This document shows positions 1 through 41,052 of a DNA stretch of 41,111 nt, one piece after another. The stretch comes from Arthrobacter sp. Marseille-P9274 (GTDB lineage Bacteria > Actinomycetota > Actinomycetes > Actinomycetales > Micrococcaceae). The notes beneath the pieces are model-generated. The model was not told the origin of the DNA and searched no databases. It worked only from the letters and a program-made list of their open reading frames with translations. Numbering within the stretch: position 1 is the stretch's first letter; each line of letters starts with the position of its first letter. A program made the translations under genes and the position numbers. Location of the stretch: contig NZ_CAMPOV010000006.1 of assembly GCF_946892675.1 (NCBI RefSeq), positions 1 to 41,111 on the forward strand. Direction: 5' to 3'.

Positions 1-2190
1 CGCCCCCCGGCGGGCCTCAAGCCCCGCCCCGAACTCGGCGAACCCGCCCATCCGCCGGTCGAGCCCAGGGTCCAGGCTCAGCCTAGACCGTCCTAGGTAG
101 CGACCGGTCACCGCGGGCGACACTCGCCAGGACCCTGCATCGATCGAATGTCGCATCTCGAAGTGGCCGGATACGTCAGGTACAACAGGAAGGCGCGGGT
201 CACGCTCCAAATCTGCACCATCAATGCCGCGAACCAGCCGGGCGCGCTGGCCGGAGGCGCCCGCAACAAAGGACCATGCCGGTGTCGGCCGCCACCGAAC
301 GGTCAGTTCGCCGCCCAGGATATTCGCGTCGCCAGCGTTACGCGTCGCCACAAGGCCGGAATTAAGAAGATAGTCCGACTGAACGTCCGACCAGATGGAG
401 CTGAACGCGCCAACTTCAACCTGAAGCCTGCCGCCGTCCGAAGTGCGTCGAAATCCAGCCTCGAAGGCGACCAACTGATCGGCATCGTAGCGGCGGGTTT
501 CCACGTTGGTTGGATCGAGGCCACCGGGCCGAAATGCGGACGCAACGCGAAAGTAGGCCAACGAGGTGGAGGAGGGCAACCATGACAACGTCGCGCTGGG
601 CGATACACCCCATAAAGACTTGGACCGAACTTCGGTTCCGACATCGTCGTCGCGGTCCTCCTTGACGGTTGAGCGGAAAACGCGGACGCCAAGGCCGAGA
701 CGAAGACCATCGACAAGCGGTCGGCTACCCTCGGCAAACATGGCCGTTTCGGTGACGCTTCTTGACGCATCCAGCAAATCTGCGATCATCGGGCCGATTT
801 CCGATGCTCGGCCGCGAGCGCCGCTACGGGATGAGAGATAGGAAACGCCCAAAGCCCAAGGCGTTCGGCCGCTTTTGTTCGCAAGGCGGATTTCCTGGTC
901 GAATACCTGATATGTGCGGGTTTCGGCATACCGCAGCGGCGCGGTCAGACCGAGGGACGAGGCCGCGCTGCTCGCGTCGTCAACCTTCAGCGTCCTCTGC
1001 GTTGCTAGGCTTGTAGAGACGGTCAGGGCATAAGGCCCAAGCTCACCTTGCAGGACGCCCGAGGTGAGCCAGACATTATTCGACCGTGGCTCCGGCGTCC
1101 GGTCTGCGCGTGTCAGCTCTTCCTTGTCGCGATCCACATATTGGCTGTCGAGCGCGCGGATGTTCTGACCGGCGCCAATGAGGTCAAAAGTCCACCCCTC
1201 GCTTGGGACAACGCGAAGCGACGCTCTGGTGCCGCGCACGACCGTTCGGTTGACGCCCGAGCGACCTCCAGCGTTGTTGATCCAGCCTGGCGCGACATCG
1301 ACGTAGCCCACCAACCGCAAGGCGGCCTGATCCTGGCGCACGGGTAAGTTGACGACGCCCTCGACCGACGCGCCGACACCGTGACCCGGGAGGCCGGCGA
1401 TACGCTGACGGGAGCGACCGGCAAATTGGCCCAAATCGGGCGCAATGGTCATCACGCGATAGACGCCGCCCAGTGCTCCTGTACCGTAAAGCGGACCCTG
1501 CGGTCCCTTCAGCACTTCGACCCGATCTACATCAACCATTCGGAAGTCGGGATCGGGCGCGTCGTAAGTGATCCGGGCCTCGTTCAGGTACACACTCACC
1601 GGGGACTGTCCGAAGCCGATAAACGGACTGTCGGCTATGCCCCGCAAGAACAATCGGCTCGCACCTGGCCCGCCATTCGTAGCAATCAATCCCTGAACCT
1701 GGGTCGCCACCGCCGACGTGCCAGCGTCCGAGCCCGCGGCGGCGCTTCCATCCAGTACATGGACCGTGACCGGTCCCGGCACTTGCGAAAGCAACTCGCG
1801 CATCTTCCTGGCGGTGACGATGATGTCCGATGAAACGGTTGGATCTGCGCTGGCGGCTGTCGGGCCGGCGTTCGGGGCGGCGGGGGCAGCCGATATCCGA
1901 AAGGTCGCCGGTCCGACGCGGTGGGCCGAGAGGCCGGTGCCTGCCAAGAGTCGCGCGTAAGCGGCATCAACCGTCATCCGGCCTCGCAACGCGATCGCCC
2001 GGCGCTGTGGAAGCGGAGCATCGAGCGCGAACGATGTCTTCGTCTGAGTGGCGAGCGCGGCGAGCATCGTCTCAAGCGTACCAGCGGGGACGTCGATCGA
2101 AAGGACACGCTCCTGAGCCGCTGCCGGTCCGGCAACGCTAGTCGCCAGCGCCGCGGACGAGACGCACAGTGCTTCCTTCCACTCTCGCAT
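1..2190 (-). CDS. TonB-dependent receptor with STN signalling domain (3' end outside window)
   Basis: Outer-membrane transporter/signal transducer. The frame is open from an ATG at 2190 to the window edge (730 codons, no stop), so the C-terminal barrel end is missing. In order it shows a signal peptide ending near AAAQE, an STN domain (about residues 27-75, beginning SIDVPAGTLETMLAALA), a TonB box DIIVTARK, a plug with VYLNEARITYD and VEVLKGPQGPLYGTGALGG, and barrel strands. STN domains contact an inner-membrane FecR protein, so this receptor should report substrate binding as well as import. It overlaps the end of the upstream FecR-type gene by 53 bp, which suggests one operon with translational coupling. 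The substrate cannot be read from the sequence; ferric siderophores are usual for sigma/FecR/receptor triplets. Confidence in the family is high. Confidence 0.93.
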   Translation of the reverse strand, partial: MREWKEALCVSSAALATSVAGPAAAQERVLSIDVPAGTLETMLAALATQTKTSFALDAPLPQRRAIALRGRMTVDAAYARLLAGTGLSAHRVGPATFRISAAPAAPNAGPTAASADPTVSSDIIVTARKMRELLSQVPGPVTVHVLDGSAAAGSDAGTSAVATQVQGLIATNGGPGASRLFLRGIADSPFIGFGQSPVSVYLNEARITYDAPDPDFRMVDVDRVEVLKGPQGPLYGTGALGGVYRVMTIAPDLGQFAGRSRQRIAGLPGHGVGASVEGVVNLPVRQDQAALRLVGYVDVAPGWINNAGGRSGVNRTVVRGTRASLRVVPSEGWTFDLIGAGQNIRALDSQYVDRDKEELTRADRTPEPRSNNVWLTSGVLQGELGPYALTVSTSLATQRTLKVDDASSAASSLGLTAPLRYAETRTYQVFDQEIRLANKSGRTPWALGVSYLSSRSGARGRASEIGPMIADLLDASRSVTETAMFAEGSRPLVDGLRLGLGVRVFRSTVKEDRDDDVGTEVRSKSLWGVSPSATLSWLPSSTSLAYFRVASAFRPGGLDPTNVETRRYDADQLVAFEAGFRRTSDGGRLQVEVGAFSSIWSDVQSDYLLNSGLVATRNAGDANILGGELTVRWRPTPAWSFVAGASGQRARLVRGIDGADLERDPRLPVVPDVSGHFEMRHSIDAGSWRVSPAVTGRYLGRSRLSLDPGLDRRMGGFAEFGAGLEARRGA

Positions 2191-3076
2191 CCAACCCCGT
2201 CAACTGCTTAAGCGTGTCGATGGCTGACGCGCCCGGTTCGATCGTGATGACGCCCGAGAAGCGCCTGTTGGCCAGGTCGCGGCCGATCTCCACCCGCCGT
2301 CCTGCGTAGCGCGACACATCAGCGACGACCAGCCCGAGCGGCGCGCGGTTATACACGAGCCGACCCCGCCGCCAGCTCCCGACGGCCTCGGTCGCCTGGG
2401 CAGTGATCTCCACCACACCGCGTCCCGGGTCTGCGAAAAGCGCCTTGCCCGCGTCTAGCACGACGGGCTGAGCGAACCGAACCGAGCTCACCGACACAGT
2501 CCCGGCCTGAACCGCCACCCTGAGAATACCGTTCTCCAGAGAGACATCGAACCGGGTGCCGACATCTTTGACGAGGAAGTCGGCCGCCTCGACAGTGAAG
2601 GGCGAAGCAGGATCGTGGCGCACGTCAAAGAACGCGGTCCCGGTCAGCCGCACGTGACGGGCATTGTCGACATTGGCAACCAATGTCGACCCAGGCGCAA
2701 GTGTCGCTTTCGCGCCGCTTGGCAGCGTGACGGACCTCATTTCGCTAGCGGCAGTGCGATAGACCGGCGAGGCGGTCGGCGCGTCAAAGCGCAGAAGCGG
2801 CAGTGATACGATGGCCACGGCCGAGGCTGCAACGGCGCCCGCGACGATGCGCCAGCGCAGCCATTTGCGTGCGCCTTTGTTTTTGACCGCGCGCGGAAGA
2901 AGAGCGGGCCGTAGGCGATCGATCTCTTCATCAAGCAGCGCAATCTCGTTATAACACGCACGATGCTCAGAATTCGCAGCTAGCCAGCGAGTAAAGCCAT
3001 CCCAGTCAAAGTCGTCGCGATGCTGTCCCTGATGCCACAGCGCGGCCTGCTCGTAGATGTCCTCTGTCGTGGTCAT
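2138..3076 (-). CDS. FecR-type anti-sigma/sigma regulator
   Basis: Inner-membrane regulator that links an STN-type TonB receptor to an ECF sigma factor. The N-terminus has the cytoplasmic FecR-N (DUF4880-like) features IYEQAALWHQG and FTRWLAANSEHRACYNEI. One membrane segment follows (WRIVAGAVAASAVAIVSLPLL). The periplasmic FecR domain contains SVTLPSGAKATLAPGSTLV and ends in an STN-like tail (GVITIEPGASAIDTLKQLTGLDARV). I place the start at the ATG at 3076 because residue 1 then precedes the conserved region. A TTG at 3139 would add 21 residues and sit just after the sigma gene stop. It lies between the sigma factor and the receptor, the canonical fecIRA order. Confidence 0.9.
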   Translation of the reverse strand: MTTTEDIYEQAALWHQGQHRDDFDWDGFTRWLAANSEHRACYNEIALLDEEIDRLRPALLPRAVKNKGARKWLRWRIVAGAVAASAVAIVSLPLLRFDAPTASPVYRTAASEMRSVTLPSGAKATLAPGSTLVANVDNARHVRLTGTAFFDVRHDPASPFTVEAADFLVKDVGTRFDVSLENGILRVAVQAGTVSVSSVRFAQPVVLDAGKALFADPGRGVVEITAQATEAVGSWRRGRLVYNRAPLGLVVADVSRYAGRRVEIGRDLANRRFSGVITIEPGASAIDTLKQLTGLDARVEGSTVRLVRGAGD

Positions 3077-3150
3077 TTCGCATCGCCGCCGACGGAGCAC
3101 GCCGGCAGTCTCCTGGTTCGAACGTAAGACGCCGAGCAAGCCATCCCGCC

Positions 3151-3717
3151 TCAGTCCCTCAGCGATCGCCGAAGAAAAGTCATCGCGGTTGCCATGTGCT
3201 TCTCCACGCCGCTGCGCGTAATGCCGAGCTCTCGAGCCACATCCGCGTGCGGCAACCCATCGAGCTTGTGAAGCCGGAACACTCGGCCGGCTGCGGGCGG
3301 CAGCGCCGCGATGGCGGTCGCCAGACGTGCCGAGCGCTGTTGGTCCTCCATCGCCTGTTCGGCGCCCGGGCGCGGATCGGCTGTTTCGCCTGGGCTGGCG
3401 GCACCATATTCCGCAACCGACCAGTCACGGTCGCGCGTTGAGCGGCGGCGTCTTTCCCGCATCCGATCCAATACAAGGTTCTGTGCCGCGCGATAGAGAT
3501 ACGCGCGGCCATTTGCGACGGGGCTGCCGCCGGCCGCATGAACTCGCAGCCAGAGTTCCTGAAGCACGTCTTCCGCTTCGGCCGGATCGCCTGTGCGCGT
3601 GATCAGAAAGCGGAGAAGCTCCGGACGGTACGCTGCGTACAAGGCGGCAAGACCGGATTGCGGGGCGTGGACGAGCTTCTCCCGTTTACCTTTTTCTCCA
3701 GGGGCGTTCGGAGGCAA
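3151..3717 (-). CDS. ECF sigma factor, FecI-like
   Basis: RNA polymerase sigma factor of the extracytoplasmic-function type, 188 residues. Region 2 reads RPELLRFLITRTGDPAEAEDVLQELWLRV and region 4 carries the helix-turn-helix ADVARELGITRSGVEKHMATAM; the VEKHM signature is typical of FecI-like factors. The frame opens with a TTG at 3717 and no ATG lies upstream in frame, so the start is provisional. It heads the operon with the FecR-type gene and the STN receptor, whose transcription it should drive once released by FecR. Its 5' region faces the divergent MlaA-like gene. Confidence 0.88.
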   Translation of the reverse strand: MPPNAPGEKGKREKLVHAPQSGLAALYAAYRPELLRFLITRTGDPAEAEDVLQELWLRVHAAGGSPVANGRAYLYRAAQNLVLDRMRERRRRSTRDRDWSVAEYGAASPGETADPRPGAEQAMEDQQRSARLATAIAALPPAAGRVFRLHKLDGLPHADVARELGITRSGVEKHMATAMTFLRRSLRD

Positions 3718-3843
3718 AAAATCCGTCCCGGCTTTTCGGCAGGTGCGGTTGCGTCCTGCGGCGGCGTCTCATTCGCAGAGGATGGCCCAAAGGCGGTGGA
3801 CTTGCAACGCCCAGGTGAGCTCTTCCTGTCGAAAGGTTATGAG

Positions 3844-4791
3844 TTGGGCACTGCTATCGTGGCTGCGGCACTGTTTCTGCCTCCTCCAGTAATGCTGGAT
3901 CAGATGGCGATCGTGCCGGTGCTTTTTCAAGAAACGGCACCTGTCGGCCATGTGCCGCAAGAGGTACCGGCTATAGGCTCCGAAGGCGAAGCAACGTCGG
4001 CAAACCCCGTTGAGGCTCCAACGCCACCGTCGTCACCGGAGGAAGGTTTGCCGATAGATATTGGCGCCGAGCAGCAGACGGTCGAACACAATGACATTGT
4101 GGTCACTGCTCGACCGGGTCATGCGCCGGGAGATCCGTTGCAAGCTGTCAACGCACAGGCATTTGCCATCACCCAGACCGTTGACAAGGCGGTCGTCGCG
4201 CCGGTGGCGATGACCTATCAACGCGCCTTGCCTGGTTCGGTTCGTGGGGCAATCCGCAATTTCTTCAATAATCTGGCTGAACCGGTTGCATTCCTCAATT
4301 TCCTCGTTCAGCTCAAACCCGGCAAGGCGGCCGAGACGGCCGGACGGTTTGCGATCAACACAACGGTCGGCGTCGCCGGGATGATCGATGTCGCCCGGAA
4401 AAAACCGTTCAAACTACCTCGTAGATCGAACGGCTTTGCCAACACACTGGGCTATTACGGCGTAAAGCCCGGCCCCTTTCTGTTCCTTCCGCTGATCGGC
4501 CCTACGACCGTCAGAGACCTCATCGGCCTTGGTATCGACCGAATGGTTCTTCCGTCGGCGTTCGGCCAGCCGTTCAACCAGCCCACCTACACGGTTCCAG
4601 CAAGCATCGTTGGGTCGCTTGATTACCGGGTCCAGTTCGACTCACAACTTCGCGAGTTGAAAGACACGCCGGACCCGTATGCTGCTTCGCGCAGGAACTA
4701 TCTGGAAGGCCGCCAGGCGGAGATTGACGCTCTGCATGGGCGAACGTCACCGCAACCGATCACGCGCCGTACGCTCCCGGTTTTCCCATGA
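3844..4791 (+). CDS. MlaA/VacJ-family phospholipid transport protein
   Basis: MlaA proteins sit at the outer membrane and extract phospholipids from its outer leaflet for retrograde transport. The family core is clear: GDPLQAVNAQAF, VRGAIRNFFNNLAEPV, ETAGRFAINTTVGVAGMIDVA, LGYYGVKPGPFLFLPLIGP and TTVRDLIG. Upstream codons continue open into the sigma gene region; I chose the TTG at 3844, preceded by GAAAGG, because it yields a short hydrophobic leader (IVAAALFLPPPV). No lipobox cysteine is present, unlike classical MlaA lipoproteins. Before the domain stands NDIVVTARP, which resembles a sphingomonad TonB box. The stop overlaps the start of the next gene (ATGA), indicating coupling. The start is uncertain, the family is not. 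Confidence 0.85.
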   Translation: MGTAIVAAALFLPPPVMLDQMAIVPVLFQETAPVGHVPQEVPAIGSEGEATSANPVEAPTPPSSPEEGLPIDIGAEQQTVEHNDIVVTARPGHAPGDPLQAVNAQAFAITQTVDKAVVAPVAMTYQRALPGSVRGAIRNFFNNLAEPVAFLNFLVQLKPGKAAETAGRFAINTTVGVAGMIDVARKKPFKLPRRSNGFANTLGYYGVKPGPFLFLPLIGPTTVRDLIGLGIDRMVLPSAFGQPFNQPTYTVPASIVGSLDYRVQFDSQLRELKDTPDPYAASRRNYLEGRQAEIDALHGRTSPQPITRRTLPVFP

Positions 4792-5474
4792 TGCATGGCT
4801 CTCCTGCTCGTTCCGAACTACGCCGCATACAAGAGAATTGGCTTGCCAAGAGCGAACGACGGGTTCTCCAATGGCTTTGCGCCCGAATGCCTGCTTCCAT
4901 CACGCCGGATCGCCTGACCGCCATCGGCATGATTGGAGCCACAATGGTTTTTGGCGGCTACATTGCGAGCAATCTTGGCCACCTTTGGTTACTTTTGTCC
5001 CTCGCCGGCTATGTCGTTCAATGGTTTGGGGACTCAATGGACGGAAGCCTCGCGCGGTATCGTAAGATCGAGCGCCCCTCCTACGGATACTTCATCGATC
5101 ACAGTTGTGACGGGATGGCAAATCTGCTGATCGTGGCCAGGATCGGCCTTTCCCCGTACGTGACCATGAACATCGCCATGGTCGCGCTGGCCGGTTACCT
5201 CTTGATGTCGGTTCACACATTCCTCGCGGCGCGAGTGATGGGCGAATTGCGACTGTCCTATCTCGCAATGGGTCCTACCGAGCTTCGCCTTTTCCTGATC
5301 CTGTTGACGATTGCGATGATGGCAATCGAGCCCGGCGGAGACCGTATCTGGACGATACCGGCACTAGACGCTCTGGTAGGATTCATCGGCGCCGCGCTGA
5401 TTTGCCTATTTATAGTGCAAACCTTGCTAGTGGCTAGAACACTTGCTCGTGTCGATTCAAATGCGGATCGTTGA
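4788..5474 (+). CDS. CDP-alcohol phosphatidyltransferase family membrane protein
   Basis: Integral membrane enzyme that transfers a phosphatidyl group from a CDP-linked donor to an alcohol. The family motif is seen at about residues 83-107: DSMDGSLAR, then G, then FIDHSCD, giving the aspartates that bind the metals (D-x2-DG-x2-AR, G-x3-D-x3-D). About six hydrophobic segments follow the usual pattern. The alcohol acceptor is not predictable. It overlaps the MlaA-like gene by 4 bp and the following glycosyltransferase by 14 bp, so the three are almost certainly co-transcribed. The context suggests synthesis or modification of an envelope lipid. Confidence 0.88.
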   Translation: MMHGSPARSELRRIQENWLAKSERRVLQWLCARMPASITPDRLTAIGMIGATMVFGGYIASNLGHLWLLLSLAGYVVQWFGDSMDGSLARYRKIERPSYGYFIDHSCDGMANLLIVARIGLSPYVTMNIAMVALAGYLLMSVHTFLAARVMGELRLSYLAMGPTELRLFLILLTIAMMAIEPGGDRIWTIPALDALVGFIGAALICLFIVQTLLVARTLARVDSNADR

Positions 5475-6633
5475 TGTCAATGAGTACTACTGCCCGACAG
5501 GAGGTGGGGTTCGAACGTACATCGACCGGAAAATGCGACTCCTGGCTGATCTTGGTCACGAACTTATTGTCATCGCACCCGGCCATGAGAATCGTCTCGA
5601 ACACCGCCCCGGCGGGGGGCGCGTTTTCTGGGTAGCCGCACCCCGCCTTCCGTTCGACCGAAGCTACGGGATGTTCTGGGATGGGGCTCCGGTAACGGCA
5701 CTGCTCGATGAACTAAATCCCGACGTCGTCGAGACAAGCTCGCCGTTTCGCCCCGCATGGATCGTCGCCAACTGGAGAGCGCCCGCGGCTAAAGTCTTCT
5801 TCGCACACAATGACCATATGACTGCCTACGCGCAGCGTTGGGTGGGACGACTGGCCTCGCGGCAAAAAGTTGAGAGTTGGTTTGGGTGGTACACCCGCTA
5901 CCTTGCTCACTTCCTCGACAGGTTCGATGCCTTTGTCACGAATGGCAGGACGCTCGACCGTTGGTATTCCGGCCGCGGACTTCAGGTCGATGCACCGCTT
6001 CCGCTCGGCGTGGAAGGCGGCGTTTTCGCCCCGCATCTTCGAGATGAACAACTACGGGCAGCGCTACTGGGCGAGTGCCACCTTCCACCTTGTGCGCATT
6101 TACTTATCGGGGTCGGGAGGCATCACCCGGAGAAGCGCTGGCCGATGGTTATTGATGCGGTTGAACAAGCCGGCCAATCGGCACCTATTGGGCTCATCCT
6201 CCTTGGCGACGGCGTCGATCGACCCAAAATCTTCAGCCGCGTCGCTGGCAATCCCCACATCCGGCTGTTTAAGCCGATCTTCGAGCGTGAGCGATTTGCA
6301 TCCGTGTTGGCCAGCGCAGATGCGCTCGTGCACGGATCGGATACCGAACCTTTTGGTCTCGTTGCCTTAGAAGCCATCGCGTCAGGGCTGCCGTTGATTG
6401 TTCCTAACGAGGGAGGGTCAGCGGAATTTGCAGCACCAAGCCATTCCGAATCCTATAATGCGCGTGACGCGAAATCCTGCGCAGCGGCGATCCTGCGCCT
6501 GTTGGCGCGGGATTCCGTACAGTTACGTTCGGCAACCCTGGATGCAGCAGGAAGAGTTCGTACGGATCTCGATCACCTAATTGATCTACTGGATTATTAT
6601 AATCAGCTACTCTTACGACGATCGATTTCATGA
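5461..6633 (+). CDS. GT4-type glycosyltransferase
   Basis: Cytosolic or membrane-associated retaining glycosyltransferase of GT-B fold. The N-terminal domain begins MRIVDVNEYYCPTGGGVRTY with the glycine-rich acceptor loop. The C-terminal donor domain has LIGVGRHHPEKRW, LILLGDG and the nucleotide-sugar E-x7-E motif in EPFGLVALEAIASGLPLIV. I chose the ATG at 5461, overlapping the upstream stop; a TTG at 5443 is possible. Placed with an MlaA-like protein and a CDP-alcohol transferase, it may glycosylate a lipid such as diacylglycerol or phosphatidylinositol. That role is inference. Confidence 0.87.
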   Translation: MRIVDVNEYYCPTGGGVRTYIDRKMRLLADLGHELIVIAPGHENRLEHRPGGGRVFWVAAPRLPFDRSYGMFWDGAPVTALLDELNPDVVETSSPFRPAWIVANWRAPAAKVFFAHNDHMTAYAQRWVGRLASRQKVESWFGWYTRYLAHFLDRFDAFVTNGRTLDRWYSGRGLQVDAPLPLGVEGGVFAPHLRDEQLRAALLGECHLPPCAHLLIGVGRHHPEKRWPMVIDAVEQAGQSAPIGLILLGDGVDRPKIFSRVAGNPHIRLFKPIFERERFASVLASADALVHGSDTEPFGLVALEAIASGLPLIVPNEGGSAEFAAPSHSESYNARDAKSCAAAILRLLARDSVQLRSATLDAAGRVRTDLDHLIDLLDYYNQLLLRRSIS

Positions 6634-6672
6634 TAAATTTCGCGAAAAAAAATGAAGCAAGGGTTGTAGTCA

Positions 6673-7146
6673 TTGACGTATCTTACGGAAAACATTCCCT
6701 GGTGGCTTGATATAGCGCGCATCCTACTGGCAGGGTTGCTGGGTGCCATAATTGGCTGGCAACGTGAGCACCACGGCAGGGAAGCCGGAATCCGAACCTA
6801 CATGGCTGCTTCGCTAGGAGCCTGCGCCTTCGGACTTGTGTCGAACGCCATCGGGGACCAAGGTCGCATCTCTGCGGGAATTGTTACTGGAGTAGGATTC
6901 ATTGGCGCCGGCATCATCCTGCGCGACGCTGGGCGCGTGACGGGGCTCACAACGGCAGCTACGCTCTGGGCGTCTGCAGCGGTCGGGTTAAGCGCCGCGT
7001 ACGGGATCTATCATCTGGCTGTCATAACCGCTCTGATGCTTCTTTTGATCCTTGAGCTGCCTCGCATGCCTGGGTGGACGCGGGTTTCGCACCGAGCCCG
7101 CTTGCATGTACACCATTCGGATTCCGACGACGAACCTACTCGATGA
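6673..7146 (+). CDS. MgtC/SapB family membrane protein
   Basis: Small inner-membrane protein, 157 residues, with four to five hydrophobic segments and the MgtC/SapB signatures RILLAGLLGAIIGWQRE, AGIRTYMAASLGA, GRISAGIVTGVGFIGAG and LTTAATLWASAAVGLS. Family members are tied to Mg limitation and virulence in other bacteria; the biochemical role is unsettled. The start is a TTG at 6673 with no in-frame ATG nearby. It follows the glycosyltransferase by 39 bp and could be the fourth gene of the same operon. Confidence 0.85.
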   Translation: MTYLTENIPWWLDIARILLAGLLGAIIGWQREHHGREAGIRTYMAASLGACAFGLVSNAIGDQGRISAGIVTGVGFIGAGIILRDAGRVTGLTTAATLWASAAVGLSAAYGIYHLAVITALMLLLILELPRMPGWTRVSHRARLHVHHSDSDDEPTR

Positions 7147-11774: not shown

Positions 11775-11783
11775 CACAGGTAA

Positions 11784-11946
11784 TTGTAGGTGCTTGCAAT
11801 CGTAGCGGCGTTTGCTTGCAAACAGAGCCTTTTTTTGCTCGGATTATCTGACAACCGGCTCGGCGATCTGCTCGCGCTATCTGCCAATGTGCTCGACATC
11901 ATCCTGCGCTGCTCGCAATCATAAAGGTCTGCTCACATCCCCTGCC
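11784..11946 (+). repeat. Left arrayed terminal inverted repeat of the mini-element
   Basis: Boxes begin at 11791 (TGCTTGCAATC), 11813 (TGCTTGCAAAC), 11836 (TGCTCGGATT), 11869 (TGCTCGCGCTATCTGCCA), 11890 (TGCTCGACATC), 11910 (TGCTCGCAATC) and 11930 (TGCTCACATC). The mostly 20-23 bp spacing puts them on one face of the helix. Confidence 0.7.
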
Positions 11947-11960
11947 AGCGAAACAGGGCG

Positions 11961-12221
11961 TCAGCGCGGCACCCGGATGGAACCTTCCGCGATCCCCTCG
12001 GCGACATTGGAGAGCATGACGGCGTAGCGATGCAAACCGGGGAAGCGACCAGCGTTCTTGTCGATTTCACCGCCGTATCCGGCGTCGAGCAACGCCTTGA
12101 AGTCGGGCATCACGTCGAACATGCCGCCGAGCAGATCGATATCGGAGGCCCCGGTAAGCAACAGGGCGTTCGCATGGGCGTCGAGACGCTTCATCGTTTC
12201 CAGCATTTCGGTCCTGGTCAT
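11961..12221 (-). CDS. Hypothetical passenger protein of the mini-element
   Basis: An 86-residue protein, not recognised. It reads MTRTEMLETMKRLDAHANAL at the start and contains DLLGGMFDVMPDFKALLDAG and HRYAVMLSNVAEGIAEG, mostly helical in appearance, with no signal peptide or membrane segment. I place the start at the ATG at 12221; a longer frame to 12317 adds an Arg-rich leader that looks non-coding. It is the only gene inside the element and its stop is about 15 bp inside the left repeat, so it is likely cargo. It could be a regulator or an inhibitor, but nothing in the sequence decides this. Confidence 0.6.
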   Translation of the reverse strand: MTRTEMLETMKRLDAHANALLLTGASDIDLLGGMFDVMPDFKALLDAGYGGEIDKNAGRFPGLHRYAVMLSNVAEGIAEGSIRVPR

Positions 12222-12423
12222 CGCATCCTGTCCGCTTGCGGGGTTCCATCGCCTAGCACGACGCGCCGGCCCTGTTCGCGAAAACCTTCCTTTCTGACGA
12301 CCTCGCGGGCGGGCCATGACGACAACGCATTTCTGCGGCCCGCCGCTTGTCAGAACTGTTCTGGAAACCTGCTTCGCAAAAGCGCTTGCCGGCTACGGGT
12401 TTGGAGAGCCCATTGGCACGGAG

Positions 12424-12578
12424 CGTGAGCACAACGCCCCGTTTGCAAGCAGCGCCGGATGATGGCGAGCACACTGGCAGATAATTCGAGCAGGACGCTC
12501 CCCGCCAGTGGCAGAAAGCGTGAGCAGGAAATCAGGCTGTTTGCGAGCACACGCCGCTATGATTGCAAGCGCCTACAA
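12424..12578 (-). repeat. Right arrayed terminal inverted repeat of the mini-element
   Basis: Read on the minus strand from 12578 inward, boxes start at offsets 7 (CGCTTGCAATC), 29 (TGCTCGCAAAC), 52 (TGCTCACGCT), 86 (TGCTCGAATTATCTGCCA), 107 (TGCTCGCCATC), 127 (TGCTTGCAAAC) and 147 (TGCTCACGCT). The spacing equals that of the left end, including the 34-bp gap between the third and fourth box. Confidence 0.7.
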
Positions 12579-12962
12579 GTAGGCCTCGCCCCAGGCGTTC
12601 AGAACCTCATCGGTTGCCGCCTCGCCCAATATGTCGCGGATCGCCGGCAACAGCGCATTGGCGACCGCAGGATAATGTTCGGGCTTGATATGGGTCTCGA
12701 CATGGCGCGCGGCGATGCGTTCGATCGCGGGTTTCAGCACGTCGAGCTTGTCGACGTTCTGCGCGAAGGCGAGGATCGCGGCCGCTAGCCGCTTAGGCTG
12801 CGCGCCGGATTCGTGCGCGGCCATGTCAAACAGCGCCTTGATCTCCGGATCGACGAACAGGCGCTGATACATGCGCGTGGTAATCTCCACGCCGTGCTGC
12901 TGGAGCGCAGGCGCCGTAGCTTTCACCAAAGCCATTGTTTCGGGGGAGAGCGGTTTGGACAT
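12573..12962 (-). pseudogene. Bacterial hemoglobin, 3' end replaced by a mobile element
   Basis: Single-domain globin of the Vitreoscilla/flavohemoglobin type, which binds oxygen or detoxifies nitric oxide. It has MYQRLFVDPEIKALFDMAAH (B/C helices), SGAQPKRLA (E helix with Gln at E7) and IAARHVETHIKPEHY (F helix with the proximal His). The frame stops after VLNAWGEAY plus one residue (TTG TAG). In relatives the G-E-A-Y stretch is followed by about 15-20 more H-helix residues. Here the last native codon is at 12579 and the stop lies in the tip of the element at 11784-12578. The product (129 residues) may still fold but is shortened. The missing tail is not found on the far side of the element. 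Confidence 0.8.
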
Positions 12963-34581: not shown

Positions 34582-35198
34582 GACAACACCGATAATCCGG
34601 TAGGCTCAGGCACCCAGCGTCCAGCTTGGCGGATAAGGCGGAATTGCATTCCATGCGCTCCGAGATTGCCGAATACGGCTGTCGCCCAAAAAGTCAGCAC
34701 ACCTTTCCGATCGCGAGATTCGACCCTCACCGTGTAGAGGATCGCTTCGGCCTTGGTCGCGGTGACGAACGGAGTGGCATCGGCCCTGCATTGGGAGGCG
34801 GGGAAGGCGGGCAAGCGCAGTAGCTCGGCCAATCGCCTGATCGTTCTTTCCGGGGCATCCTTAACAGCGCCATCGGCGAGGCCCTGCAGCCCGACACAAA
34901 TCGCTTGCTTGCCTTCCCCCGGTCGCGCCCGCGCGACCGCCTCGTCGAACATCACGTCGATCTGCGCATCATCGAGGCCGCTAATGTCGGGAGCGCCAGG
35001 AACCGCGATGGCACTCCCGTTACCATGATAATTGGGGCCGGGCACTGGCGGGGGAGGGGGCGGCGGCAATTCCGACGAACTTGCTCGTTGGGGTGGTCCC
35101 TCCGCCACCGCCGGTTCTTTCGCCGGACTACATCCTGCGAGACTGATGGCCAGACTGACGACGATGGCGGCACCAGGCCATTGCAGCCCCGTCATCAT
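34578..35198 (-). CDS. Predicted lipoprotein
   Basis: A 206-residue protein with signal AAIVVSLAISLAGC (lipobox LAGC), a proline-rich linker (ELPPPPPPPVPGPNYHG) and a domain containing QAICVGLQGLADGAVKDAPE and RTIRRLAELLRLPAFP, ending in a beta-rich stretch with SRDRKGVLTFWATAVFG. Not recognised. The ATG lies about 3 bp inside the end of the resolvase gene on the same strand, so it may be read through from it. Confidence 0.68.
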   Translation of the reverse strand: MMTGLQWPGAAIVVSLAISLAGCSPAKEPAVAEGPPQRASSSELPPPPPPPVPGPNYHGNGSAIAVPGAPDISGLDDAQIDVMFDEAVARARPGEGKQAICVGLQGLADGAVKDAPERTIRRLAELLRLPAFPASQCRADATPFVTATKAEAILYTVRVESRDRKGVLTFWATAVFGNLGAHGMQFRLIRQAGRWVPEPTGLSVLS

Positions 35199-35746
35199 GG
35201 CCGTTCCTGTAACCGCGAAATCGTCGCCTGGCTGACGTTGAACAGCGCCGCGACGGAACGCTGAGTGTCGCCGGCGTCGAGCTTGCGCCGTGCCTCGGCC
35301 TGCTGGTGGGGGGTGAGGGCGCTTTTGCGGCCGAACTTGACCCCGCGCGCCTTGGCCTGGGCGCGGCCGGCGCTGGTGCGCTCGACGATCCGCTGGCGCT
35401 CCCAGCTCGCCGCGACGCCCAGCACCGCGATCACGACCTCGGCGAGCTGCGATGTCGTGTCCAGCATCGGCTCGGCGATCGAGCGGAAGCCGGCGCCGGT
35501 CTCCTTGACCGCGTGCAGGATGTTGAGCAGGTCACGCGTGTTGCGGGCGAGGCGATCGGTCGCCGTCACCATCAGCACGTCGCCGGGATCGAGCGCGCCG
35601 ATCGCGCGCTTGAGCTGAGGCCGCTCGGCCGACGCGCCGCTGATCTTCTCGCGGTAGATCTTCGTGCAGCCGGCCGCCTCAAGCTGGGCGAGCTGCTGGG
35701 CCAGGTCCTGGCCGTTGGTCGAGACGCGCGCATAGCCGTAAATCAT
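35195..35746 (-). CDS. Serine resolvase/invertase
   Basis: A 183-residue small serine recombinase. The catalytic Ser is in IYGYARVSTNGQDL, with conserved GDVLMVTATDRLARNTRDLL and SWERQRIVERTSAGRAQAKA. A C-terminal helix-turn-helix is DTQRSVAALFNVSQATISRL. The start is the ATG at 35746, giving the family N-terminus; the five extra residues upstream are not conserved. It probably resolves plasmid multimers or cointegrates. Its own upstream region, where a res site would lie, is interrupted after 44 bp by the transposon starting at 35791. Confidence 0.9.
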   Translation of the reverse strand: MIYGYARVSTNGQDLAQQLAQLEAAGCTKIYREKISGASAERPQLKRAIGALDPGDVLMVTATDRLARNTRDLLNILHAVKETGAGFRSIAEPMLDTTSQLAEVVIAVLGVAASWERQRIVERTSAGRAQAKARGVKFGRKSALTPHQQAEARRKLDAGDTQRSVAALFNVSQATISRLQERP

Positions 35747-35790
35747 GCCGCGATTCTGCATCAGATTTTTGCATCAGGGAAGGGCGCGGA

Positions 35791-35806
35791 TGTAAACGCT
35801 CGCGCT
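35791..35806 (+). repeat. Left terminal inverted repeat, outer part
   Basis: TGTAAACGCTCGCGCT is the outer 16 bp of the transposon end. The IS200-type element follows directly. The repeat resumes near 36395 with AAATGGCGGCGTTCTG and continues to 36425. Confidence 0.82.
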
Positions 35807-35835
35807 GAATGACTGACCGGCTGACGCCGGTAGGT

Positions 35836-36255
35836 TCATGGCGAAGGGCTGAAGCCTTGCTTGTGGGTATGGCGGTCGAGATAGCGCATGATGATATCGT
35901 CGGTGATGTTTCCGGACGTGGTTGAGAAGTAGCCACGCTGCCAGAAGCGCTGGCCCCAGTAGCGCTTGCGGATATGCTCGAACTCCTGCTGGATCTTGCG
36001 CGAGGACCGCCCCTTGACCCGGCGCACGAAGTCGCTGACCGAGATATGCGGTGGGATTTCAACGAACATATGGACGTGATCGCGTGAAAGCGCGCCATTG
36101 ACGATCGTCACGCCCATTTCGACACAGACCTGCTTGATGATCTCGCGCACCCTGAGGCGGACCTCGCCGTGCAACACCTTGAAACGGTATTTGGGCGCCC
36201 AGACGATATGATAGCGATGATGAAAGGTCGTGTGGCAACCACTCGAATAGCCCAT
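35836..36255 (-). CDS. tnpA: IS200-type Y1 transposase TnpA
   Basis: A 139-residue HUH transposase that moves single-stranded DNA. It shows YHIVWAPKYRFKVLHGEVRL near the start, the HUH motif in SRDHVHMFVEIPPH, and the nucleophile Tyr region in KRYWGQRFWQRGYFSTTSGN. The length matches the family, so it is probably intact. Its start codon and SD lie in the arm of a perfect 28-bp palindrome (36254-36326), a known IS200-type way to keep expression low. Confidence 0.93.
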   Translation of the reverse strand: MGYSSGCHTTFHHRYHIVWAPKYRFKVLHGEVRLRVREIIKQVCVEMGVTIVNGALSRDHVHMFVEIPPHISVSDFVRRVKGRSSRKIQQEFEHIRKRYWGQRFWQRGYFSTTSGNITDDIIMRYLDRHTHKQGFSPSP

Positions 36256-36326
36256 AGCAGGTATCCTCGGGAAAGTGAGACTTCACGCCTTTCAGGCGGT
36301 CTCACTTTCCCGAGGATACCTGCTAT
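36254..36326 (-). promoter_or_regulatory. Perfect 28-bp palindrome over the tnpA start
   Basis: Arms 36254-36281 and 36299-36326 are perfect reverse complements. The 17-nt loop carries a CGCC/GGCG mini-stem. The SD (GAGGAT) and ATG of tnpA fall in one arm, so folding of a read-through transcript would hide them and could also stop polymerase. Confidence 0.8.
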
Positions 36327-36423
36327 TATGCGAGTCTATGGCTGAAGCCAGTATCCGACTGAAGTCGGAGGGGTTGCTCCCAAAGCGTGACGCTAAATGG
36401 CGGCGTTCTGATCGCGCTATTTG

Positions 36424-37302
36424 TCAGTTGCCGGGTCCGATGACGAGGCAATCGCGCGCGGCCTGAACGATGTCAGCGGTGACCTCCTCGACGCGGTTGA
36501 GGGTCATGATCCGCCGCATCTGCGCGAACAGGCGCTCCATGAGCCGGAAGTTGCCGCGCGTGATGCGGATCACGGCTGCCTGCGCTTCGATCGCGTCGAG
36601 TTGGGCCGGGTCGAAGCTGATCCCGAAATCGCCGGCGTGGGTCGCGAGCAGCAGCCGCATTTCGGTCTCGGTAAGCGGTTTGAACTCGTGGACGAAGCCG
36701 ATCCGCGAGTAGAGCTGGGCATAGCGGGCGAGGCGCTTCTCCAAGCCCGGCATACCCATCAGGATCAGCCCGAAGCCGTGGCGATCGGCCATGTCGCGGA
36801 GATGTTCGAGCGACTTTATGGTCAGGCGGTCGGCCTCGTCGACGATGACGAGGGGGCAGGCGATGCGGGCGGCGTCATGGGTGATTTCGTCCTGCGAGCC
36901 GCCCGCGACCGTCAGCCGGGCATAGCCCAGCTTAATGAGGTTGAGGCCCAACACCGCGTCGATCGTCTTGGGCGTGTTGCTGACCGACACGGTGTAGAAG
37001 ACGGCGCGGCAGCGAGCGACCTTTTCGCCAAGGAGCGCGGCAATGGGACGGAGCGCGGCATATCCCCCCAGGTCGGGGAAGCTGGAAAACTCGCGCGCCG
37101 ATCGCGTCTTTCCGACGCCCGGCCGGCCATGACACACGCCGATATAGCGGTAGTGCGCGCAGGCTTCGGCAAACTCGACGAACCGGGCATGTTCGCGGGT
37201 CGCCAGGAACGGCTGCTCGACCAGGAACTCAATCGTCAGCGGCGTAGAGCCGGAGCCCTCGGTAGGTGGTGGGCCGGGAAGCCGTATCCTCTTGGTCGCC
37301 AT
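36424..37302 (-). CDS. tniB: TniB-type transposition ATPase
   Basis: A 292-residue AAA+ ATPase that selects the target and activates the transposase, related to MuB and TniB. Walker A is CHGRPGVGKTRSA and Walker B is CPLVIVDEADRLTIKSLEHL, with a sensor-like LILMGMPGLEKRLAR. The start is the ATG at 37302 with SD GGAG; it overlaps the end of tniA by 74 bp on the same strand. Its stop at 36424-36426 lies at the inner edge of the left terminal repeat, so it is the last gene of the element. Confidence 0.88.
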   Translation of the reverse strand: MATKRIRLPGPPPTEGSGSTPLTIEFLVEQPFLATREHARFVEFAEACAHYRYIGVCHGRPGVGKTRSAREFSSFPDLGGYAALRPIAALLGEKVARCRAVFYTVSVSNTPKTIDAVLGLNLIKLGYARLTVAGGSQDEITHDAARIACPLVIVDEADRLTIKSLEHLRDMADRHGFGLILMGMPGLEKRLARYAQLYSRIGFVHEFKPLTETEMRLLLATHAGDFGISFDPAQLDAIEAQAAVIRITRGNFRLMERLFAQMRRIMTLNRVEEVTADIVQAARDCLVIGPGN

Positions 37303-37935
37303 CGAAGGTCTCCGTGGGGGCAGGCACCTGCTTGTCGCGCTCCTTCGCGCCGCGCCGGGCGCGCTGGATCGCGCGCAACGACGGGTGCCCAGCGTGCTCG
37401 GAGCTGAGCGCACGGCAGACGAACCGGCCCTGGTGGTAGACGTGGATCTCGGTCAGGTCGCGGGGGTCATAGACCGCCTCGACCTGCTCGCCGACGAAGG
37501 CCGCGAGCGTGGGTTCGACATAGCGCCTGCCCATCAGACGGATGCCGTCGCGCAGCACTTTACGGGGCTTGGGCACGTGCACGAGCAGCATGTCGAGCTG
37601 TTCAAGGCTGTCGGGCATTGCGGGCAGGAACCCGCCCTTCTGCCAGCGCGTGATCGGCGGTTCGCCGGTGCTGCCATGCGGGCGACGATGATAGACGCCG
37701 CACACGAACGCCTCGAAGCGGGCGCGCAGCTCGTCGAGCGTGAGCACTGGCGCCGACAGCGGCTTGCCCGCGATCAGGTGGCCGGGCAGGTCGGGCAGGA
37801 ACATGTCGTTGATGGTGCGGAACAGCCGCTCGATCTTGCCGCGCCCGCGAGGACGCCCCGGCAGCGAATGGATGAGGCGGATTTTGAGGGCGATGCACGC
37901 CTGCTCGATATGCTCGGAGATGAAATCCGAGCCGT
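37229..37935 (-). pseudogene. tniA: tniA transposase, C-terminal fragment
   Basis: The 3' 235 codons (including the stop) of the DDE transposase, cut off by the IS110 element. It begins GSDFISEHIEQACIALK and includes the third catalytic residue, Glu, in GRPRGRGKIERLFRTI, then the Mu-transposase C-terminal beta-barrel (LMGRRYVEPTLAAFVGEQVE) and a charged tail. A frame exists upstream into the IS, but its sequence there is not family-like. Joined to the fragment at 39593-40366 it restores a continuous protein. Confidence 0.85.
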
Positions 37936-38086
37936 AGCACATTGGGAAGCTGCCCCTCGAAGGCAGCATTCGCCTTGATGGAGACAAGGGCGCGTAGCGC
38001 CCGACGGCTTCATCAAGGCGGCCATGACCGGCCAGCAGGTCACTAAAGTGAAGTTGTCGACTCAACACTTTGGAGACTGACCGACC
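37936..38086 (+). ncRNA. Candidate bridge RNA region of the IS110 element
   Basis: The leader folds into GCTGCC/GGCAGC (37949-37967) and an outer stem CGCCTTGATG/CATCAAGGCG (37971-38020) enclosing GGGCGC-GTA-GCGCCC (37988-38002), then GGCC/GGCC (38020-38033). IS110-group elements encode a structured guide RNA here. GTTGTCGAC at 38053-38061 repeats the core plus right target flank (39593-39601). Confidence 0.5.
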
Positions 38087-39379
38087 ATGACCAAGCGCAG
38101 TTCTACTCCGGCCGATGCCGTGCTGGTAGCCATCGATATGTCCAAGCACCGCCAGGAAGTGCTGATCGAACGCCCGGAGGGCGGACGACGTCGCCGCATG
38201 ACAGTCATGGCTACCAAGGCTGATTACGACCGCCTCGCGGACGATCTGGCAGCCATCGGCAGACCTATCGTCGTTGGCTTTGAGGCCACCGGCAACTACC
38301 ACCGTACGCTGGCGCACCGACTGCTAGCTGCGGGTTTCGAGCTGCGCCTGATTTCGTCGGTCGCCTTGGCACGGACGCGTGAGGCGTTGCATAATGGCTG
38401 GGACAAGAACGATTCCAAAGACGCCCAGGTAATTCTGCACATGCTCCAGATCGGCGCCACTCAGCGCTACGTCGACCCGCTGGCCGCCGGCATCAACGAC
38501 CTGCAGGAGATGTCGAAGACGCACGAGGCCATTTCCAAGGCGAAGACGCAGACCTGGCACCGCATCCTGACCCATTACCTGCCTTTGTATTTTCCCGAGA
38601 TCGAACGTTTTGCGGGCAACAGCCGGTCCGACTGGTTCCTGGCTCTGCTCGAACGGTTTCCGACACCGGCCAGCATGACGACGCTCGGTCAGGAGGCCTT
38701 CACGCGCGAGGCCTGGTCACTGGTCGGCCGCAAGGTCTCCAAGGCCCGCTTAATCAACGATATCTACGAGACGGCCTGCGCCTCGGTTGCACTGCCGGTC
38801 GACGAGGAATCCGTCGCGGTCGCCATGTTCCGCATGGTCATCGCACAAGCCCGCAGCCTGATCCGGCAACGCGATGAGATCGAGCGGACCGCCAATGCCA
38901 TGCTCAGCGAGAACCGCGACTATCAGCTCCTGCGCATGATCCCCGGGATCGGCCCGATCAACGCGCTGACGATCCTCGCCGAGGCTGGCGATCTTCGGCG
39001 CTTCAACCATCATCGCCAGTTCCTGAAGTTTTGCGGGCTCGACCTGGCCACCTGTCAGTCAGGCACCTTCCGAGGCCGAACCAAGCTCTCGAAGTACGGC
39101 AATGCCCGGCTACGCCGCACCTTCTGGATGGCGACCCAGGTCGCCATTCGCCAGCGCGACAACAGTTTCCGCGACAAGCTTGGTCGCTATGTGGCCGGCC
39201 ACGGCAACGACCCTGATCGCCGCCGCAAGGCGATGACCGCACTCACCGCCAAGATGGCGCGCGTCGCGCACGCCGTCATCAAGACGGGAACCGAGTACCG
39301 TCCGTTCGTCGAACGGACGGACACCAGATGGAAGGACCCCTCTCTGTGGAGCCGTGAGGGCGCAGCCGCGACCCTGTAG
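38087..39379 (+). CDS. IS110-family transposase
   Basis: A 430-residue DEDD recombinase. The RuvC-like N-terminal part has the first Asp in VLVAIDMSKHRQEV, the Glu in VVGFEATGNYHRTL and the paired Asp in WDKNDSKDAQVILHML. The C-terminal Transposase_20 domain has LLRMIPGIGPINALTILAEA and LATCQSGTFRGRTKLSKYGN, where the Ser is the likely nucleophile. All expected catalytic residues are present and the length is typical, so it looks functional. It lies opposite to the tniA it interrupts. Confidence 0.93.
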   Translation: MTKRSSTPADAVLVAIDMSKHRQEVLIERPEGGRRRRMTVMATKADYDRLADDLAAIGRPIVVGFEATGNYHRTLAHRLLAAGFELRLISSVALARTREALHNGWDKNDSKDAQVILHMLQIGATQRYVDPLAAGINDLQEMSKTHEAISKAKTQTWHRILTHYLPLYFPEIERFAGNSRSDWFLALLERFPTPASMTTLGQEAFTREAWSLVGRKVSKARLINDIYETACASVALPVDEESVAVAMFRMVIAQARSLIRQRDEIERTANAMLSENRDYQLLRMIPGIGPINALTILAEAGDLRRFNHHRQFLKFCGLDLATCQSGTFRGRTKLSKYGNARLRRTFWMATQVAIRQRDNSFRDKLGRYVAGHGNDPDRRRKAMTALTAKMARVAHAVIKTGTEYRPFVERTDTRWKDPSLWSREGAAATL

Positions 39380-39592
39380 ATAATGTTCGGGCCTTCCATC
39401 TGGCATCCGCATCTCATTTTAAGGACGGTGAGGACCACGACCGGTGCGGTCGCTGGATCCTGTGTTTGCTATGGCCGAGAGCGCATTCCTTGACGATGGA
39501 AGCCATCTGGATCAAAAAGTCATCAGCGCCGATCACGCTCGGCGCAACGAGACCTGCTGGCCTTTTCCCGCCGCTGCTTCCCAACCTAGGAC

Positions 39593-40366
39593 GTTGTCGA
39601 CGTAAAGCTGTTCGGGAATGCCGCTGACGATCCATTCGGGATTGGGCTTGCGCCAGATCGCCTGCCGCAAGGCGAGCGCCGTGTTGAGGGCACTGGGGGC
39701 ATCGAGGCTGAGGAAGTAACCGGCGATGGCTCGGCTGTGATCGTCAACGATGACGGTCAGCCAAGGACGCACCGGGGTTCCGGCATCATCGAGCACGAGA
39801 ATGTCGAGAACGGTATGATCGGCCTGCCACATCTCGTTCGAGGTCGCGGCTTCGCGCCGATGCACTAGCTCGTGCTGGTCGCGGTAGACGGCCGGATCGG
39901 AGGCTGCGGCGATCTGGCTTGCCGGTATCGCCCTGACGACACGCGCGACGGCCGCATAGCTGGGGGTTCGGTGTCCATGCGCGATGGCGAGTTCCTGCAC
40001 CTTTCGGTGAATGGCGGCGACCGGGGGTCGCGGGCGCTTGGTGGCGAGAGTGCGGGTCAGTTCGACCAGATGTTCCGGCAGGTGCAGCCTGCCCCGATCG
40101 TTGCGCGGCAGACGCGCGAGACCGGCAAGTCCTTCGGCACGGTAGCGCCCGAGCCAGCGCTGCAACGTCCGCTCGCTCAGCGTGCCGGTGCGGGCGAGGT
40201 CCGCGAGCGGGATGCCATCGGCGAGGTGCGGTTCAAGGACGCGGTAGCGCTCGATCGCCAGCGGCGGGACAAGCGCCGGATGCGTCACCGCCGACGGTCC
40301 GTGTCGCAGGTAAGGAAAACGGAGATTTGCCTGCCCATCGCCATGCGAGTCCGCTCGCGTTGCCAA
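39593..40366 (-). pseudogene. tniA: tniA transposase, N-terminal fragment
   Basis: The first 258 codons of the DDE transposase. It has helix-turn-helix domains (GIPLADLARTGTLSERTLQR and onward) and the first two catalytic aspartates in NEMWQADHTVLDI and LYVDN. The frame continues into the IS110 end to a stop at 39533, adding about 19 foreign residues. With the fragment at 37229-37933 it gives a 492-residue protein of the TniA/Tn552 type. As interrupted it lacks the catalytic Glu. Confidence 0.86.
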
Positions 40367-40479
40367 ACCGGCCTGTTCGACGTAAATCTACCCGGTAAAG
40401 AAAACTAGGGCAACATAGACCTGCCGATGACGACTTTCTTCCCAAACCGCGCCCGATCGGGGCGCCACCGGCCCTACGC
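40367..40479. promoter_or_regulatory. Divergent promoter and probable res site of the transposon
   Basis: The 113 bp between tniA and the divergent resolvase gene is where Tn552-type elements place res. I see no clean inverted repeats beyond CGCCCGATCGGGGCG-like symmetry near 40449-40463, so this is assigned mainly by position. Confidence 0.4.
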
Positions 40480-41052
40480 ATGAAAATCGGTTACGCCCGC
40501 GTATCGACCGCCGAGCAGAACCTGGACCTCCAGCGTGATGCGCTGAAGGCTGCCGGCTGCGAGAAGGTCATCACCGACAAGGCCTCCGGGGCGACTGCCG
40601 CTCGCCCTGGATTGGAAAAGGTGAAGGAGCTGCTTCGCGCCGGCGACACACTGGTGGTCTGGCGCCTCGACAGGCTCGGCCGCTCGCTCCGTGATCTGAT
40701 CGGATGGATGACCTACCTCGACGAGGAAAAGGTCGGGCTGCTGAGCCTGCACGAGGCGATCGACACGACCACCACGTCGGGCAAGCTTACCTTCCACCTG
40801 TTCGGGGCATTGGCGGAGTTCGAGCGCAACCTGATCCGCGAGCGGACCCAGGCCGGTCTCACCGCAGCCCGCGCTCGCGGCAAGAAGGGTGGCCGGCCGG
40901 CCGCACTCGGCAAGGACAAGCGCGACCTGGCCGTCAGGCTCTACCACGAGAACACGATGCCGATCGCCAAGATTTGCTCGATGCTCGGCATCTCCAAGCC
41001 AACACTCTACGCCTATGTGCGATCGGCCGAGACCAAGCCGGTAGCCGCGTAG
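40480..41052 (+). CDS. Serine resolvase of the transposon
   Basis: A 190-residue small serine recombinase that should resolve cointegrates formed by TniA/TniB. Features are the catalytic Ser in IGYARVSTAEQNLDLQ, GDTLVVWRLDRLGRSLRDLI, FHLFGALAEFERNLIRERTQ and a C-terminal helix-turn-helix MPIAKICSMLGISKPTLYAY. It differs clearly from the resolvase at 35195-35746, so the two belong to different units. The stop lies 11 bp from the inner end of the right terminal repeat. Confidence 0.92.
   Translation: MKIGYARVSTAEQNLDLQRDALKAAGCEKVITDKASGATAARPGLEKVKELLRAGDTLVVWRLDRLGRSLRDLIGWMTYLDEEKVGLLSLHEAIDTTTTSGKLTFHLFGALAEFERNLIRERTQAGLTAARARGKKGGRPAALGKDKRDLAVRLYHENTMPIAKICSMLGISKPTLYAYVRSAETKPVAA

What the first reader, a model, noticed from the sequence alone, without database searches (positions are those of the whole stretch)
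11784..12578. Non-autonomous element with seven-box arrays at both ends
Both ends carry seven TGCTYGCAA-like boxes at the same offsets, including one 34-bp gap, in inverted orientation. The ends occupy about 40% of the 795-bp element and one gene of unknown function lies between. Arrays like this are known for Tn7/Tn5053-type transposases, yet no such transposase is inside. The tip (TGTA-N2-CGCT-N-GC, then GCGGCG) resembles the tip of the TniA/TniB transposon at 35791, so an enzyme of that type may mobilise it. I know of no described mini-element with this design.
Basis: partly seen in the sequence, partly recalled or inferred. Interest (0 to 1): 0.82.

Follow-up and report, generated by a model that had tools for sequence, protein, structure and literature searches.

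The report
Mini-transposon carrying two seven-box ends
A 793-bp stretch of this bacterium's DNA is a stripped-down jumping element that kept its two long ends, a likely recombination site and one small gene but lost its own transposase, and here it sits exactly where two different plasmid segments are joined.

Summary
Window 11785-12577 (793 bp, TGTAGG...CCTACA) has two 161-bp inverted ends, each with seven TGCTYGCAA-like boxes at matching offsets. It is a mobile, non-autonomous element: near-copies occur in other sphingomonad replicons at different sites, some with 6-bp duplications, and one clean empty/filled pair exists.

The same seven-box ends bound plasmid transposons carrying a resolvase, a DDE transposase (labelled IS481 family) and an AAA ATPase. 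The element is an internal deletion of such a transposon. It kept both ends, a res-like site and an 86-codon gene under purifying selection (dN/dS 0.08).

Targets are NNTANN: 49 of 50 distinct flanks. Here the two flanks are halves of two different targets, each intact in other plasmids. So this copy marks a replicon fusion or deletion joint.

The closest known concept is TIMEs (Tn3-derived miniature elements). This is the analogue from a non-Tn3 lineage. In 2 of 6 contexts opened, the small protein's homologue directly follows tnpR of a Tn3-family transposon. Its function is unknown.

The parts
11785..12577 (.). whole mini-element, 793 bp
   Evidence: full-length matches elsewhere begin and end here
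11785..11945 (+). left end with seven boxes (starts 11791, 11813, 11836, 11869, 11890, 11910, 11930)
12417..12577 (-). right end with seven boxes (minus-strand starts 12571, 12549, 12526, 12492, 12471, 12451, 12431)
11961..12221 (-). 86-codon gene; public records call it 'arylsulfatase regulator' or hypothetical; purifying selection; helical model with mean pLDDT 92
12281..12408 (+). res-like region: conserved blocks 12281-12300, 12347-12368, 12373-12408, matching the region just upstream of the resolvase gene in autonomous relatives; not tested biochemically
12408..12414 (.). deletion scar: the res-like region runs straight into the right end; resolvase, transposase and ATPase genes are absent
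11779..11784 (+). half-target GGTAAT just downstream of a YgjV gene; same site intact in a Sphingobium yanoikuyae plasmid (L048, 100% over 700 bp)
12578..12583 (+). half-target AGTAGG inside a globin gene cut near its 3' end; intact in L047, L050, L051 (95-96%)

Best explanation
The element is an internally deleted, non-autonomous derivative of a plasmid transposon family that encodes a serine resolvase, a ~550-aa DDE transposase and a ~325-aa AAA ATPase. It kept what must act in cis: both seven-box ends (inferred transposase-binding sites) and a res-like site. It also kept one small gene. A transposase/ATPase supplied by a relative in the same cell (inferred) joins the ends to a 6-bp target with a central TA (NNTANN; shown by flanks). 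The resolvase and res-like site in the parent family imply replicative transposition through cointegrates (inferred). Resolution at the res-like site, or by recombination between copies, gives a simple insertion with a 6-bp repeat. Unresolved or intramolecular events, or recombination between copies, give joints with two different half-targets. The window copy is such a joint (shown: both targets exist uncut elsewhere; which of the three routes made it is not shown). The small protein is under selection and perhaps serves the transposition or resolution module rather than the host (weakly supported).
For: Ends of the same design bound transposons with resolvase, DDE and AAA genes. Alignment to the Sphingopyxis sp. 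MG transposon runs through left end, gene and res-like region, then the mini-element jumps to the right end. Different sites with duplications: 8 of 22 distinct full elements have 5-6 bp repeats, 6 of the 17 under 1 kb. 49 of 50 distinct flanks have TA at -4/-3. Empty/filled pair pUT1 versus pISP3. Half-targets of the window copy intact elsewhere. An Erwinia mini-element (888 bp, duplication AATAGG), by its sequence a separate product, also kept ends plus res-like region plus a resolvase fragment. dN/dS 0.08 between two mini lineages that share the same deletion scar.
Against: No transposase of this family in the window's own genome (0 matches; the tool warns that an empty answer alone shows nothing), and only 3 of 16 genomes holding the gene have one (one of the three is only 54% identical, one has an internal stop). 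In the plasmid records no transposase-bearing relative has a left end closer than 80.5% (60 of 63 records listed). 11 of 17 elements under 1 kb lack a duplication, and so do 3 of 4 autonomous ones. The strict res motif is missing in 1 of 16 genome loci, L028. Transposition in trans, replicative mode and res function are not shown by any experiment.
Confidence: 0.83

Rival explanations
1. The element no longer transposes; it spreads only with plasmids and moves between replicons by homologous recombination between copies.
For: Hybrid copies exist: C9:5901-6693 has one end of each type beside a fused small-plasmid backbone; 11 of 17 small copies lack duplications; no helper in 13 of 16 genomes.
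Against: Duplications at different sites in copies 86-100% identical to the window copy; clean empty site; a hybrid type in L032 has a duplication. These show past transposition of the mini-element, not that it is active now.
Confidence: 0.1
2. The Tn552-like transposon at 35.2-41.1 kb of the window mobilises it.
Against: Its transposase gene is split by an IS110-type ORF; no seven-box array; only short chance-level matches (E 0.05 or worse) between the element's ends and the window downstream of 12600.
Confidence: 0.03
3. The small gene is an ordinary passenger with a host or plasmid benefit (maintenance, stress), and selection on it has nothing to do with transposition.
For: Some homologues lie apart from resolvases: beside a MobQ relaxase gene in P. 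cerasi (L039, nearest resolvase 2.4 kb away) and in a cluster with no annotated transposase or resolvase within 6 kb in Teredinibacter (L041). No fold or family match.
Against: In Sphingopyxis it abuts the res-like region; in Vibrio and E. coli Tn3-family transposons the homologue directly follows tnpR with a 4- or 8-bp overlap; in Robbsia it is the start of a longer gene directly after a Tn3 transposase gene.
Confidence: 0.45
4. The box arrays are iterons or regulatory repeats of a plasmid, not transposon ends.
For: Many copies are on plasmids; arrays of short repeats occur in origins (recalled).
Against: Inverted arrays end exactly at insertion boundaries, with duplications and an empty site, and bound transposase genes.
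Confidence: 0.01

Closest known systems
[quoted passage not shown] PMC4133298 and PMC13367494, passages seen)
   Same: Non-autonomous, on plasmids, mobilised in trans, some with a res site, fuse replicons, often without direct repeats (in PMC4133298 four of 18 complete TIMEs are flanked by repeats).
   Different: Tn3 38-bp ends and Tn3 transposases there; here 161-bp seven-box ends, an unrelated DDE/AAA system, NNTANN target, and a conserved small gene in the element.
Resolvase / 'IS481 family' DDE / ExeA-like AAA plasmid transposons (one record names the transposase ISAzs36)
   Same: Same kind of ends, res-like region and target as the element.
   Different: The element lacks all three enzymes.
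Tn552, Tn402/Tn5053
   Same: Distantly related transposase (hhalign probability 95 on small alignments of 7 and 2 sequences), AAA protein and resolvase in the full-length kin; multi-site ends are known there (recalled).
   Different: No TniQ match, no significant TniA or TniB BLAST hit, TA-centred target, seven boxes.
Toxin-antitoxin pairs abutting res in Tn3-family transposons (PMC7157771, passages seen)
   Same: A small gene next to res in the transposition module.
   Different: A single gene with no toxin or antitoxin family match.
Prokaryotic MITEs that carry ORFs (review PMC10969869, passages seen)
   Same: Short non-autonomous elements; the review says that MITEs often encode ORFs of unknown function.
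   Different: Here the ORF has homologues in other transposons and shows purifying selection.

Membership tests
Non-autonomous derivative of the resolvase/DDE/AAA plasmid transposons | Shared ends with the autonomous kin | tested here: met
   same seven boxes and spacing; left end 72-79% identical to the ends of four autonomous elements, right end 70-77% where the match is long; one L016 end matches the right end only in two short pieces
Non-autonomous derivative of the resolvase/DDE/AAA plasmid transposons | Shared internal sequence with one deletion | tested here: met
   aligned to L009 through gene and res-like region, then right end
Non-autonomous derivative of the resolvase/DDE/AAA plasmid transposons | Same target and duplication | tested here: met
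   NNTANN in both; 6-bp duplication in L016 (autonomous) and in minis, but 3 of 4 autonomous copies lack a duplication
Non-autonomous derivative of the resolvase/DDE/AAA plasmid transposons | Moves when the kin's transposase is supplied | not testable with these tools
   bench test needed
TIME (Tn3-derived miniature element) | Tn3-type 38-bp inverted repeats and Tn3-family helper | tested here: not met
   the seven-box ends are those of transposons whose transposase has rve/Mu-type matches; Tn3 repeats were not aligned directly
TIME (Tn3-derived miniature element) | res site kept (some TIMEs) | tested here: inconclusive
   three conserved blocks in the res position; function not tested
Tn402/Tn5053 family | tniA, tniB, tniQ, tniR genes in the full-length kin | tested here: not met
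   no TniA, TniB or TniQ match in four autonomous elements at E 1e-2; resolvase 46-50% to TniR
Tn552 family | p480-like transposase | tested here: inconclusive
   21-24% identity, E 1e-7 to 1e-10: kin at superfamily level only
MITE in the broad sense | short, inverted ends, no transposase, multiple sites, duplications | tested here: met

The most novel reading that the evidence does not exclude
The mini-element is a cis-complete parasite that brings its own control protein. The 86-aa protein, kept under strong selection after the three enzymes were lost, belongs to an unnamed family of resolvase-linked accessory factors shared by two unrelated replicative transposon lineages. It would steer borrowed transposase or resolvase, for example by favouring or blocking cointegrate resolution, and so make the element a driver of sphingomonad plasmid fusion.
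Probability: 0.2. Interest if true: 0.75.

Novelty: new variant of a known kind. Interest (0 to 1): 0.52.

Why it matters
It suggests that the miniature, res-carrying, replicon-fusing life style described for Tn3 derivatives also arose from an unrelated DDE/AAA transposon family, apparently at least twice (sphingomonads, Erwinia). Copies leave readable half-targets, so plasmid fusions and deletions in sphingomonad plasmids can be traced. It also points to an unnamed small protein found next to resolvase genes in two transposon lineages, which can be tested.

Tried and rejected
Rejected: (1) helper at 35.2-41.1 kb. (2) The pISP3 copy L011 8001-12595 as the autonomous parent: it is the mini-element interrupted by a Tn3-family transposon with a 5-bp repeat CAAAA. 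(3) A clean empty site for the window copy: the two flanks come from different targets. The S. koreensis plasmid holds segments matching both sides of the window far apart, but the YgjV gene is not annotated next to its TonB block, so I draw no deletion size from it. (4) The reciprocal joint in the own genome: not found. (5) Function of the small protein by family or fold: nothing significant in Pfam, NCBIfam, PHROGs, PADLOC, PDB or BFVD. (6) A wider survey of the small gene in 396 Pseudomonadota genomes at E 1e-5: only the own genome (at most 13 candidates scored in the rows shown); viral contigs: none of 69 pattern matches confirmed. (7) Prevalence in 395 family genomes: 3 had a match, full-length only in the own genome, but the tool scored only 2 candidates per genome in the rows shown. 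(8) Literature: searches gave no description of this element in their listings; the library is open-licence PMC papers only, and of the listed papers I saw passages of four.

Full report
What is there. Window 11785-12577 is a 793-bp element. Both ends (161 bp, about 77% identical to each other over 138 bp) carry seven boxes at nearly the same offsets. Shuffles and a scan of the whole window show that the arrays are not chance. The window's own genome holds a second full copy on contig C9 (96%) and a partial one. Outside it, 68 of 72,556 plasmid records match the element, 5 with one place covering at least 80% of it, and 16 loci in the species-genome collection encode the inner gene (173 stretches matched a pattern, 16 were confirmed).

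Ends and targets. For 54 element ends with 50 distinct 30-base flanks, T is at -4 in 49 of 50 and A at -3 in 49 of 50 (duplicate loci were left out beforehand). Read from both sides this is NNTANN with a central TA. Of 22 distinct elements with both ends in hand, 8 have repeats of 5-6 bp; of the 17 under 1 kb, 6 do. In pISP3 of strain MM-1 the filled site, and in pUT1 of strain UT26 the empty site, differ by the element and a 5-bp ATTAG repeat. So the element inserts.

The family. Elements with the same seven-box spacing carry a resolvase, a ~550-aa DDE protein and a ~325-aa AAA ATPase in Sphingopyxis (L009), Agrobacterium (L013, with phosphonate-related genes), Serratia (L015) and Novosphingobium (L016, where the resolvase is seen only as two tblastn pieces and may be frameshifted). 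In 72,556 plasmid records the DDE protein has relatives in 785 at E 1e-10, including a Salmonella plasmid with spv genes and an Azospirillum plasmid, where the record's name is ISAzs36. Pfam finds weak rve and Mu-transposase C-terminal matches, below the curated cut-offs. BLAST gives at best E 0.095 with Tn402 TniA and 21% identity with Tn552 p480 (E 2e-8). A profile comparison with TniA plus p480 gives probability 95 and E 2e-8 (alignments of 7 and 2 sequences). I read it as a separate branch of the wider Tn552/Tn402-like transposases; no tree was built. No TniQ match was found in four full elements.

How the mini-element arose. Against the Sphingopyxis transposon it aligns through the left end, the small gene and the region upstream of the resolvase, then passes into the right end. 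That upstream region has three blocks shared by the Sphingopyxis, Agrobacterium, Serratia and Sinorhizobium elements in an alignment, and by eye in Novosphingobium. I read it as a res site by position and pattern; it is not proved. A strict motif for the middle block occurs in 15 of the 16 genome loci with the small gene (not L028) and in the other complete elements fetched by then. The copies listed whose scar is visible share it, so one founder deletion is likely for the sphingomonad lineage. An Erwinia element of 888 bp, whose ends and inner sequence resemble the Serratia transposon, looks like a separate product: it kept ends, res-like region and a resolvase fragment, flanked by AATAGG repeats.

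The small gene. The conserved frame is 86 codons. Two mini lineages that share the scar differ by dN/dS 0.08, and the comparison of the window copy with Sphingopyxis gives 0.16, so the protein is kept. AlphaFold gives five helices with mean pLDDT 92. No database of families or folds names it. More distant relatives (below 60% identity; 30-43% in the rows listed) occur in 140 plasmid records with one query and 147 with another. Of six such contexts that I opened, the gene directly follows tnpR in two Tn3-family transposons (Vibrio L073, E. coli L074; overlaps of 4 and 8 bp), is the start of a longer gene directly after a Tn3 transposase gene in Robbsia (L040), has a Tn3 transposase and a resolvase gene within 5 kb in Vibrio pJM1 (L042), lies 2.4 kb from a resolvase gene and next to mobQ in P. 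cerasi (L039), and has none annotated within 6 kb in Teredinibacter (L041). The contexts were chosen by me, not sampled.

The window copy as a joint. The left flank ends in GGTAAT. The same sequence runs on uncut in a S. yanoikuyae plasmid (100% over 700 bp). The right flank starts with AGTAGG inside a globin gene that is complete in three other plasmids (95-96%). Two different targets thus meet at this copy. That is the shape of one side of a cointegrate, of an intramolecular deletion, or of recombination between two copies. I cannot tell these apart. The reciprocal joint was not found in the assembly. Other copies fit: L025-left is uncut in L048, L026-left (in a recombinase gene by the match) in L047, L050 and L058, and L031-right and L033-left are the two halves of one site AATAGC that is uncut in L034, L030 and L049. 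On C9 the element joins a 5319-bp stretch, equal in length to the backbone of the 6108-bp plasmid pDE7 and matching it over 500 bp at both element flanks, to other DNA through a hybrid copy.

Mechanism. Shown: inserted element, target, scar, selection on the gene, joint. Inferred: transposase binding at boxes, action in trans, replicative transposition and resolution at res. The parent family's resolvase and res-like site make the replicative reading natural. The scarcity of helpers (none found in the own genome; 3 of 16 carrier genomes) suggests that many present copies are silent passengers of plasmids until a helper arrives.

Comparison. TIMEs from Tn3 transposons are the nearest known kind: short, mobilised in trans, sometimes with res (IS101, TIME244), fusing replicons, often without repeats (PMC4133298 and PMC13367494, passages seen). 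This element works like a TIME but is not one: ends, helper and target differ. PMC7157771 (passages) describes toxin-antitoxin genes abutting res in Tn3 transposons; the small gene here sits in a like place but matches no such family. A review (PMC10969869, passages) says that prokaryotic MITEs often carry ORFs, so a gene in a mini-element is not in itself new. I found no paper on this element in nine searches of an open-licence library, judged from listings.

Noticed in passing
window 35195-41052: A Tn552-like transposon whose transposase gene is in two pieces (39545-40258 and 37307-37951) on either side of an IS110-type ORF (38087-39379), with an IS200-like gene at 35836-36255 and two resolvase genes.
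   Followed up: partly
L018 (own genome C9) 1-6693: Contig C9 contains a stretch of pDE7-backbone length between two mini-element copies; one copy is cut by what looks like an IS6100 end (recalled from its sequence), the other is a hybrid of two element types.
   Followed up: partly
L008 3096-3983: Erwinia tasmaniensis pET49 carries a mini-element with six boxes per end (one 20-bp box unit missing in both ends), a res-like region and a resolvase fragment.
   Followed up: partly
L011 7818-12595: In pISP3 the mini-element sits about 180 bp inside the end of a related transposon, so kin ends do not exclude it; a Tn3-family transposon sits inside the mini-element.
   Followed up: partly
L009 9922-10191: The Sphingopyxis transposon carries an HU-family gene next to its right end.
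   Followed up: no
L013 9001-17892: The Agrobacterium relative carries phosphonate transport and phosphonate dehydrogenase genes as cargo.
   Followed up: no
L049 2645-3414: The S. hankookensis copy lacks its right tip and runs into a GNAT gene.
   Followed up: no
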